In this document: piece after piece, positions 37,706 to 39,731 of the stretch
Position numbering within the stretch: position 1 is the stretch's first letter
How the letters are laid out: each line of letters begins with the position of its first letter
NCBI GenBank assembly: GCA_027019175.1
Contig: JALUXB010000063.1
Coordinates: forward strand, 1 to 39,731
DNA: 39,731 nucleotides
Direction of reading: 5' to 3'
Source of the DNA: Sulfurovum sp.
GTDB taxonomy: Bacteria; Campylobacterota; Campylobacteria; Campylobacterales; Sulfurovaceae
Translations under genes and position numbers: made by a program
Notes under the pieces: model-generated
What the model saw: only the letters and a program-made list of their open reading frames with translations
Databases searched by the model: none
Told to the model about the DNA's origin: nothing

Positions 37706-38842
37706 TTACAGCTCCTTTACTTTTTCAATAATATCTGCAGGTGAGAATGGACGACCATTCGTTTTTGTCAGTTTTTCAATATCACGTCTTCCCATACATC
37801 TCTGTACCTCTTCAAGGTACTGTCCCTGGTTCAGCTCCACAACCAGTACTTTGTCAAACTTCTGTCCGAGTTCGAACATTCTCTCTTCAGGAGATGGCCA
37901 AAGGGTGATTGGTCTGAAGAGTCCGGCTTTGATTCCCTGCTCTCTCAATACATTGACAGCTTCTTTGATAGCCAGTGAAGCTGAACCGTATCCGATCAGA
38001 AGAATTTCTGCATCATCTACCATATACTCTTCATTGCTTTCAATTTCATCTCTGTGTGCATCAACTTTTTTAAAGAGTCTGTCGATCAGCTTTCTACATG
38101 TCTCGATCTCTTCGGTCGGGAAGCCCATTGCATCATGGTGCAATCCTGTAAAGTGGTAACGATACCCTTCAAACATTGGGTTAAGTACCGCCGGCTCATC
38201 CTGAGCGACACCGTATGGTTTATAGTCTGCAGGGTCACCTTCAAATTTCTTTCTCGGTTTGATACCCGCTTTAACCTCTTCAACAGTTGGAAGCATTGCT
38301 TTTCCATGCATATGCCCCAGTGTTTCATCAAGCAGTACAAAAACAGGCTGCATAAATCTGTCAGCCAGGTTGAACGCTCTTACAGTTTCAGTATAACACT
38401 CTGCAAGTGTTCCGGCACACACAGTAATGGACTTGTAGTCACCGTGGCTTGGGTTCTTCGCCTGAGCAACGTCTCCCTGAGAAACACGTGTAGGCAGACC
38501 CGTTGATGGACCGCCCCTCATGACGTTGACAACTACCAGCGGTACTTCTGCCATCTGTGCAAGTCCAAGGTTTTCCGCTTTGAGTGAAATACCAGGGCCT
38601 GAAGTCGCTGTCAAGGTACGCACACCTGCCATACCAGCACCGATCGCCGCTGCGACACCTGCGATCTCATCTTCCATTTGAATGGCAGTACCACCCACTT
38701 TTGGAAGCAGATCCGAAATGGTATGCATAACCTCACTCGACGGGGTAATAGGATACCCTCCGAAGAACATACACCCGGCATCTACCGCCGCAATTGCAGC
38801 CAGGTCGTTACCGCTTGAAATAATCTCTCTTGTTGCTGACAT
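37706..38842 (-). CDS. oorA: 2-oxoglutarate:acceptor oxidoreductase, alpha subunit
   Basis: The pyrimidine-binding alpha subunit, 378 aa. The hallmark blocks are MFFGGYPITPSSEV, QMEDEIAGVAAAIGAGMAGVRTLTATSGPG and VVNVMRGGPSTGLPTRVSQGD. The late region YGSASLAIKEAVNVLREQGIKAGLFRPITLWPSP is the CoA-side domain. The ATG shares its first base with the oorD stop codon (TAATG), indicating translational coupling. A strong GAGGCG lies upstream inside oorD. Confidence 0.96.
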   Translation of the reverse strand: MSATREIISSGNDLAAIAAVDAGCMFFGGYPITPSSEVMHTISDLLPKVGGTAIQMEDEIAGVAAAIGAGMAGVRTLTATSGPGISLKAENLGLAQMAEVPLVVVNVMRGGPSTGLPTRVSQGDVAQAKNPSHGDYKSITVCAGTLAECYTETVRAFNLADRFMQPVFVLLDETLGHMHGKAMLPTVEEVKAGIKPRKKFEGDPADYKPYGVAQDEPAVLNPMFEGYRYHFTGLHHDAMGFPTEEIETCRKLIDRLFKKVDAHRDEIESNEEYMVDDAEILLIGYGSASLAIKEAVNVLREQGIKAGLFRPITLWPSPEERMFELGQKFDKVLVVELNQGQYLEEVQRCMGRRDIEKLTKTNGRPFSPADIIEKVKEL

Positions 38843-39174
38843 TAGTTCGCCTCCTTGTAATCTTCAGGTAACATATACCCGTTTTCTTTAATAATTTCTT
38901 GTCTCTTCTTTGAAGACTCTGTCAGTTTTGCAAATTTATATTCTTTCTTTTCCGCAACATAAATTGCAAAGTCAGGACAACAGAGTTCGCACTCGTTACA
39001 CCCGATACAGGCATCAGGATAGACAACGCTGATCATCGCCCCCAATACTGATGTCGGTTCCAGTTTCATCGAGAGAACACCTGCCGGACAGGCATCCACA
39101 CAAATGTCACATGCTTTACATCGATCCGTATTTACCCATACCGGAGTATTTTCTGGAGCTTTCATTACTGCCAT
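38842..39174 (-). CDS. oorD: 2-oxoglutarate:acceptor oxidoreductase, delta (ferredoxin-like) subunit
   Basis: A 110-aa protein with two 4Fe-4S motifs: C19, C22, C25, C29 and C56, C59, C62, C66, each followed by a proline after the last cysteine. It passes electrons between the TPP site and external ferredoxin. It is the first gene of oorDABC, with AAGGGGAAAAC before the ATG. In relatives such as Campylobacter jejuni the operon follows sucCD; here the 550 bases upstream hold no recognised gene. Confidence 0.95.
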   Translation of the reverse strand: MAVMKAPENTPVWVNTDRCKACDICVDACPAGVLSMKLEPTSVLGAMISVVYPDACIGCNECELCCPDFAIYVAEKKEYKFAKLTESSKKRQEIIKENGYMLPEDYKEAN

Positions 39175-39219
39175 GTTTTCCCCTTAATTTTGAAGTTTGT
39201 TGTTTCGTGAGATCGCCAA

Positions 39220-39269
39220 CCTGGGTTTGACTTGAGAGTTTTAAAAGCAACTGCCAAGTCAAACCCAGG
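39220..39269. other. Perfect 15-bp palindrome with 20-nt loop upstream of oorD
   Basis: CCTGGGTTTGACTTG (39220-39234) and CAAGTCAAACCCAGG (39255-39269) are exact reverse complements. The structure ends 45 bases before the oorD start codon. There is no T-run on either side, so it is not a standard terminator. It may be a leader RNA structure or an end of an old element. Confidence 0.8.
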
Positions 39270-39543
39270 ATGTCAGGGATATCCCTTATTCACTACATAA
39301 AGAATAGCTTACTTTTTGTAAGGTTGCTTTGAATAAGCCTGAATTATTGGTAGCATAAGGGGTGTTGTTACCATTCGAAGCAGCATTTTTACCCACCTTT
39401 TTGATAGGTTTTTACTTCACTTGAAAACTGCACTTCTTCCTTTTGATGTGCTGTTTCCATAGGTGTATCGTTTAGTTACTATTTGGGTATTGAGCATTCT
39501 TCTTTACAAGAAAAATGCCTGACATCCTATCATCTCTCAACTA

Positions 39544-39681
39544 ATGGGAAATGTTAACATTCATTGGATAATTGATGCAAAGATTCCTGTTTTTACAAGG
39601 ATGATACATGTAAAAAATGGAGTTAAAGTAAAGAAATGGGTTGCTGAAAACCTAAGCAAAGCCCGATACTATGGGAGTTAA
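39544..39681 (+). CDS. Doubtful 45-aa open reading frame
   Basis: It starts ATGGGAAATG and ends at TAA. The product is basic, with IHVKNGVKVKKWVAENL and KARYYGS at the end, and looks more protein-like than random sequence. There is no ribosome site (CTCAACTA precedes the ATG) and no family match I can name. It could be the remnant of a larger gene. Confidence 0.2.
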   Translation: MGNVNIHWIIDAKIPVFTRMIHVKNGVKVKKWVAENLSKARYYGS

Positions 39682-39731
39682 AAAGGGATTATCTACAGAT
39701 GGGTTGTAAAAAAGATGTCCAAATTGTAATT

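What the first reader, a model, noticed from the sequence alone, without database searches (positions are those of the whole stretch)
39220..39528. Large palindrome and nested inverted repeats upstream of the oor operon
Seen: a perfect 15-bp stem with a 20-nt loop 45 bases before oorD, an 11-bp inverted repeat spanning about 240 bases, and a further hairpin within. No T-run follows, and no gene explains the region. Inference: a structured leader RNA controlling this key carbon-fixation operon, or the end of an old mobile element. In relatives oorD often follows sucCD closely, so the 550-base gap is itself odd.
Basis: partly seen in the sequence, partly recalled or inferred. Interest (0 to 1): 0.6.

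Follow-up and report, generated by a model that had tools for sequence, protein, structure and literature searches.

The report
Structured mRNA leader of oor operon
The palindrome before this Sulfurovum carbon-fixation operon lies inside the operon's own messenger RNA, between two short complementary sequences that nearly every relative keeps at the message's likely front end, so it is probably part of a folded leader that shields the message rather than the end of a mobile element.

Summary
In detail: a 15-bp perfect stem (39220-39234 / 39255-39269) with a 20-nt loop lies 45 bases before oorD, plus an 11-bp inverted repeat. On the minus strand, relatives show a family-wide conserved promoter with a -10 box at 39301-39306. 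It is followed after 6 nt (usually) by AGTGA (39290-39294), the predicted RNA 5' end. TCAC, complementary to GTGA, recurs in 67 of 68 distinct Sulfurovaceae oorD leaders (7.9 expected by chance), at loop lengths from 5 to 79 nt. Every loop of 16 nt or more (15/15) holds its own hairpin. The mobile-element-end reading is rejected: the 15-mer has no other close copy in the genome. The 11-bp repeat is incidental, because its outer arm lies in foreign DNA beyond 39484. The 550-base gap is not odd; sucD sits 400-850 bases upstream in relatives. Best mechanism: a 5'-terminal stem-loop that protects oor mRNA from 5'-end-dependent decay, like H. pylori vacA. A rival is a switch in which the same strand pairs with the Shine-Dalgarno sequence. 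No transcript data exist.

The parts
38842..39174 (-). oorD, ferredoxin-like subunit of 2-oxoglutarate:acceptor oxidoreductase, first gene of oorDABC
   Evidence: ORF of 110 aa; 69-100% identical homologues in 80 loci, nearly all Sulfurovaceae, and matches in 148 of 150 genomes of the order
39180..39185 (-). Shine-Dalgarno AAGGGG of oorD
   Evidence: Near-invariant AAGGGGA before the start codon in Sulfurovaceae oorD
39207..39210 (-). P1 3' arm, TCAC (within GATCTCACG)
   Evidence: TCAC in 67/68 distinct leaders, 7.9 expected by shuffling; the most conserved 4-mer of the leader
39220..39269 (-).
   Evidence: Folded leader z = -5.6; P3-type hairpin in W, L021, L022, L051 and a different long hairpin in L023; 4 of 10 stem pairs changed on both sides among three variants
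39275..39286 (-). P2: small hairpin AGGG-ATAT-CCCT
   Evidence: Equivalent hairpins with different sequence in the long-loop leaders
39290..39294 (-). P1 5' arm AGTGA; predicted transcription start at A 39294
   Evidence: AGTGA lies 6 nt after the -10 box in 67/81 and 7 nt in 11/81 leaders
39301..39306 (-). -10 box TATTCT
   Evidence: TAT[T/C]CT conserved in 79 distinct promoters
39307..39382 (-). Conserved upstream promoter region: gap-free spacing, 11-bp periodic boxes, including GGTAACA (39366-39372), which fits the HP1021 box KGTWDCD
   Evidence: box consensus from PMC8266642
39485..39619 (.). DNA not shared with the closest relative; carries the outer arm of the 11-bp repeat (39518-39528); 39530-39604 resembles dispersed repeats of related genomes
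   Evidence: Homology with L021 stops at 39484
39620..39731 (+). End of a multi-copy insertion sequence running off the contig, including the start of its transposase (KRCPNCN...)
   Evidence: 96-100% copies, several at contig ends, in this genome and in G002; the same protein start continues as a full ORF in L005 and a relative of it in L008; weak InsA zinc-ribbon match

Best explanation
The region is the promoter and 5' untranslated leader of oorDABC on the minus strand. Transcription is predicted to start at A 39294, so the mRNA begins 5'-AGUGA. GUGA pairs with UCAC about 80 nt downstream (stem P1). The space between is filled by self-folding hairpins P2 and P3, P3 being the 15-bp palindrome. 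The RNA 5' end is thereby held in a stem. Most likely this slows removal of the 5' phosphates by RppH and attack by 5'-end-dependent RNase J, lengthening the life of the mRNA of a central reverse-TCA-cycle enzyme. The loop sequence is free to vary as long as it folds on itself and keeps P1 closed, which is why the palindrome is prominent here and absent or tiny in relatives. Shown here: conservation, complementarity, compensatory changes, position relative to the -10 box. Inferred: the start site, pairing in the cell, and the effect on mRNA stability.
For: The same promoter with fixed spacing lies upstream of oorD in nearly all of the 80 loci. AGTGA sits at the distance from the -10 where a start is expected (67/81 at 6 nt, 11/81 at 7 nt). 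TCAC is kept in 67/68 distinct leaders against 7.9 expected, at loop lengths 5 to 79 nt, and in 14/15 leaders that lost the wider CTCAC motif. This variable spacing fits an RNA stem, not a dimer site on DNA. All 15 loops of 16 nt or more contain a hairpin (combined p 2e-19; sequences are related, so nominal), with stems of different sequence. P3 has 4 of 10 pairs changed on both sides among three variants, against 0-1 in slid controls. In the window P1 has probability 0.84 against 0.31 when its context is shuffled. The one leader without TCAC (L066) can still pair its 5' end. Precedent: the H. pylori vacA stem-loop at +4 to +30 sets mRNA half-life, and pairing repair restores it (PMC4843948); B. 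subtilis RppH needs at least two unpaired 5' nucleotides and G at position 2 (PMC3997798), and here G at +2 is in the stem.
Against: No transcript start is mapped in any Sulfurovum that I could find. P1 itself is invariant, so it has no covariation of its own; its support is complementarity at variable distance. P1 is only 4-5 bp, and in many relatives predicted folding prefers a different pairing (mean P1 probability 0.56 real against 0.70 with shuffled context). The sequences are related, so p-values are nominal. Three P3 variants are few, and their arms were cut and put in register by hand. Sulfurovum RppH and RNase J were not examined.
Confidence: 0.5

Rival explanations
1. Bistable translation switch: the segment UCUCAC(UU) pairs either with the 5' end AGUGA, leaving the Shine-Dalgarno free, or with the Shine-Dalgarno AAGGGGA, hiding it. 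A signal (protein, temperature, metabolite) would choose between the two.
For: The predicted pairing of UCUCACUU with AAGGGGA is about five times stronger than in context shuffles (1.44 against 0.30 mean summed pairing) and is the minimum-energy fold in many relatives. The Shine-Dalgarno is near-invariant AAGGGGA in this family, whereas most other families have AAGGAG-like sites.
Against: Most of the 15 distinct leaders that lost CTCAC while keeping TCAC show little of it. In the window the segment is UCUCACGAAA and hardly pairs with the Shine-Dalgarno (0.14). The enrichment may be inherited from few ancestors. No Rfam match.
Confidence: 0.2
2. Binding site: the stem-loop is recognised by an RNA-binding protein or small RNA that controls oor translation or decay, with P1 as the recognised part.
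For: AGUGA and UCAC are invariant in sequence, more than a pure protection stem needs.
Against: Loop length and content vary from 5 to 79 nt. No candidate protein was identified.
Confidence: 0.12
3. The GTGA/TCAC repeat is a DNA operator at the start site, and the palindrome is a separate protein-binding site or neutral.
For: Perfect inverted repeats are typical operators; the promoter has other conserved boxes.
Against: Spacing between the halves is 5, 7-15, 22-28, 72 or 79 nt, which a fixed dimer could not span. P2 and P3 keep pairing with different sequences.
Confidence: 0.08
4. The palindrome is the end of an old mobile element or an intergenic repeat.
For: A multi-copy insertion sequence lies about 350 bases further upstream. 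P3 occurs only in the close relatives.
Against: The stem sequence has no close second copy in the genome and the 11-mer only its own pair. The hairpin sits at the same place with diverged but paired arms in relatives, not as a copy of one element.
Confidence: 0.04

Closest known systems
H. pylori vacA 5' UTR stem-loop (PMC4843948)
   Same: Stem-loop next to the mRNA 5' end in a Campylobacterota species; structure is kept by pairing; proposed to limit RppH and RNase J
   Different: Different gene, no sequence relation known. vacA has one stem at +4 to +30. Here a short invariant outer stem closes loops of very different length and content, family-wide. No stability data here.
E. coli ompA 5'-terminal stem-loop (general knowledge; cited in PMC3997798)
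   Same: 5'-terminal pairing as an mRNA stabiliser
   Different: E. coli acts through RNase E, which H. pylori lacks (PMC4843948)
Campylobacterota sigma-70 promoter with periodic A/T signal (PMC3656092)
   Same: -10 box without a -35 box, periodic upstream conservation (11 bp here)
   Different: The -10 is TAT[T/C]CT rather than TATAAT; gene-specific boxes reach about 77 bp upstream of the -10
Fur-controlled oorDABC promoter of H. pylori (cited in PMC9696931; original paper not held)
   Same: Same operon under its own transcriptional control
   Different: Fur boxes were not tested here; the conserved leader was not seen in the families sampled outside Sulfurovaceae

Membership tests
5'-terminal mRNA-stabilising stem-loop | Stem-loop at or within a few nt of the mRNA 5' end | tested here: inconclusive
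   AGTGA begins 7 nt after the end of the -10 box, where a start is expected, but no start site is mapped
5'-terminal mRNA-stabilising stem-loop | Pairing is conserved while sequence varies | tested here: met
   67/68 TCAC at variable distance, 15/15 long loops folded; 4/10 double changes in P3. P1 itself never varies.
5'-terminal mRNA-stabilising stem-loop | Disrupting the stem shortens mRNA half-life and re-pairing restores it | not testable with these tools
   Needs a genetically tractable host
Known riboswitch or RNA family (Rfam 15) | Match above a curated score | tested here: not met
   Only sub-threshold matches to eukaryotic microRNAs and one CRISPR repeat family
Mobile-element end or dispersed repeat | Several copies in the genome | tested here: not met
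   Stem core and 11-mer without further close copies; no BLAST match of the hairpin elsewhere in G000
Intrinsic terminator or attenuator | Stem followed by a run of T | tested here: not met
   TTGGCGATCTCAC follows the stem; scan found none on this strand
Campylobacterota sigma-70 promoter | -10 box with periodic upstream signal and no -35 box | tested here: met
   79 promoters, power peak at 11-11.5 bp; description from PMC3656092
HP1021/CemR target | Box KGTWDCD in the promoter and binding of the regulator | tested here: inconclusive
   GGTAACA fits the consensus, but the consensus is short; binding was not testable and the orthologue was not searched

The most novel reading that the evidence does not exclude
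The oor leader of Sulfurovaceae is a new class of bistable RNA regulator: one strand (UCUCACUU) chooses between the mRNA's 5' end and the Shine-Dalgarno sequence and so tunes a key reverse-TCA-cycle enzyme, with an expandable loop in which some lineages, like this one, have grown a long hairpin that locks the open state.
Probability: 0.13. Interest if true: 0.65.

Novelty: new member of a known kind. Interest (0 to 1): 0.42.

Why it matters
2-Oxoglutarate:acceptor oxidoreductase is a carboxylating step of the reverse TCA cycle, the carbon-fixation route of Sulfurovum and other vent Campylobacterota; I found no description of how its expression is set in Sulfurovum. A family-wide leader with a fixed outer stem and a free loop gives a simple testable handle. 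It also suggests that structure rather than sequence is kept, and that a striking palindrome can be a private elaboration inside a shared scaffold.

Tried and rejected
Mobile-element end: rejected. The 11-bp inverted repeat as part of the structure: rejected, because its outer arm lies past the homology break at 39484 and is not shared by L021. Terminator or attenuator: rejected, no T-run. Short ORF in the gap-free conserved block (a 21-codon frame on the minus strand, seen by eye): dropped, because conservation follows 11-bp phased promoter boxes and the -10 box rather than codons. Known RNA family: no match. HP1043/CosR direct repeat TTTAAG-N5-TTTAAG (PMC5253667): only loosely like TTAC..CTAAG before the -10; not claimed. 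A wider regulon with the TGCTTC-N5-GTAACA box: own-genome matches did not exceed the reversed control (24 against 34). The same -10/AGTGA/TCACT layout at other genes: in 31 Sulfurovum genomes 5 matches, 4 of them the oor-type leader and 1 elsewhere. The element outside Sulfurovaceae: not present as such. Other families with a separate oor promoter often have some other hairpin in the leader, but only weakly beyond shuffles (combined p 1e-4, hand-picked leaders). MAFFT alignments A1, A2 and A4 of the leaders were not in structural register and were not used for pair counts; A3 used hand-cut arms.

Full report
The two arms 39220-39234 and 39255-39269 are perfect complements over 15 bp with a 20-nt loop, 45 bases before oorD, and an 11-bp inverted repeat spans 39267-39528. 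The folded minus-strand RNA from the predicted start to the oorD ATG is much more stable than shuffles (-42 against -23.8 kcal/mol, z -5.6, 0 of 200). Rfam has no credible match.

The 550-base gap is not what it seems. The contig ends at 39731, inside an insertion sequence whose end lies at about 39620 and which has near-identical copies elsewhere in the genome, two of them at contig ends. The last codons read KRCPNCN, the start of a transposase seen as a full ORF in L005, with a relative in L008 (weak InsA zinc-ribbon match). Homology with the closest relative (L021, OorD 100% identical) stops at 39484; in that relative sucD lies 409 bases before oorD, and in other Sulfurovum loci checked with sucD upstream 441-849 bases. 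So a long intergenic region is normal here, and the outer arm of the 11-bp repeat lies in foreign DNA.

Comparison across relatives reveals the real object. A BLAST of the region against related genomes found a block of about 97 bases without gaps upstream of oorD. With 80 oorD loci from named genomes, nearly all Sulfurovaceae, the minus-strand architecture is plain. Boxes TTGCTTCaAA, GGTAACA, cTTAT, AATAAT, TTATTcATA and cATTA lead to a -10 box TAT[T/C]CT. Conservation has an 11-bp period, as described for Campylobacterota sigma-70 promoters, which use a periodic A/T signal in place of a -35 box (PMC3656092). Six nucleotides later (67 of 81; seven in 11) comes AGTGA, where transcription should begin. 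Then follow a stretch of very different length, TCAC, and the Shine-Dalgarno AAGGGGA before the ATG.

TCAC is the complement of GTGA. It is present in 67 of 68 distinct leaders, while 7.9 would be expected after shuffling; it is the most conserved 4-mer of the leader, and it survives in 14 of 15 leaders that lost the surrounding CTCAC. The distance between GTGA and TCAC takes values from 5 to 79 nt. Such spread does not suit a DNA-binding dimer but suits an RNA stem. Where the loop is 16 nt or longer, it always (15 of 15) contains its own hairpin, so the two arms stay close in space (combined p 2e-19, nominal because the sequences are related). The small inner hairpin (P2) appears as AAGGG..CCCTT, AGGGC..GCCCT, AGGGT..ACCCT, AAGGA..TCCTT, TAGAAGA..TCTTCTA and so on: different letters, same pairing. 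The one leader without TCAC can still pair its 5' end, with bulges.

Among the genomes sampled, P3-type stems occur in the window, L021, L022 and L051, and a different long hairpin in L023. The arms differ between these genomes but remain paired: over 10 core pairs of three variants (arms cut and put in register by hand), 4 pairs changed on both sides and 29 of 30 cells pair; sliding the partner by 1 to 3 columns gives 0-1 double changes and 24-56% paired. In the window, P1 has pairing probability 0.84, against 0.31 when its context is shuffled.

It is not a mobile element. The 14-base core of the stem has only its own two exact copies in the genome; the 11 other matches, all at two mismatches, are about what the reversed pattern gives (9). 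The 11-mer occurs only as its own pair. The layout -10/AGTGA/TCACT occurs in 31 Sulfurovum genomes five times, four of them the oor-type leader.

Function. The most likely role is that of a 5'-terminal stem-loop protecting the message. The closest tested precedent in the phylum is the vacA leader of H. pylori, where a stem at +4 to +30 sets mRNA half-life and restoring the pairing restores it; the authors propose reduced RppH access and hence less RNase J attack (PMC4843948). B. subtilis RppH needs at least two unpaired 5' nucleotides and a G at position two (PMC3997798); here the predicted second nucleotide is a G inside the stem. A different reading is a switch: UCUCACUU is also complementary to AAGGGGA, and in roughly two fifths of the leaders this pairing competes with P1. 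But it is missing in most divergent members and weak in the window, so it is either a lineage-specific layer or accidental.

Regulation of the promoter was not resolved. The conserved GGTAACA box fits the redox-regulator HP1021 consensus KGTWDCD (PMC8266642), a short motif; deletion of the related regulator gene Cj1608 in C. jejuni lowers Oor protein 1.7- to 2.0-fold (PMC11334517); in H. pylori Fur activates oorDABC (title cited in PMC9696931). These are leads only.

Scope. Outside Sulfurovaceae, oorD often follows sucD or another gene closely, or has another leader. Some of these leaders contain a hairpin of other sequence, with weak statistical support, which would fit a general need for a structured oor leader but does not show it.

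Verdict: a real, conserved, apparently undescribed promoter-leader of a central carbon-fixation operon, with the palindrome as a lineage-specific part of a family-wide 5' stem-loop. What is shown is conservation and pairing potential; the start site, the fold in the cell and the effect remain inferred.

Noticed in passing
window 39620-39731: Contig ends inside an insertion sequence; its end and transposase start recur at 96-100% identity in this genome and in G002, several times at contig ends, so this element probably broke the assembly.
   Followed up: partly
window 39530-39604: Resembles (72-80%) dispersed 60-75-base repeats found many times in related genomes G002 and G009; possibly a small non-autonomous repeat.
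   Followed up: no
about window 39455-39485 (minus strand); also L021, L022, L023, L051, L030: A second conserved motif, roughly GTAAC-N-AAA-YGATACA, lies upstream of the promoter block in the close relatives; it may be another regulator site.
   Followed up: no
L022 and L023, upstream of oorD: Short tandem repeats (AACGCTG in L022, CTAAACC in L023) lie between sucD and oorD, so this spacer seems prone to repeat expansion.
   Followed up: no
L206, L207, L208, L212, L157, L214 (family f16): A similar core promoter (AAAACTtrGaTACTCT) and leader hairpins with changing arms (ATGTAAA/TTTACAT, ATACAAA/TTTGTAT, TTACAAA/TTTGTAA) occur before oorD in another family of the order.
   Followed up: partly
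window 39308-39322: CTTACTTTTTGTAAG is a perfect small palindrome within the promoter, but many relatives have TTAC...CTAAG without complementarity, so it is probably not functional as a palindrome.
   Followed up: partly
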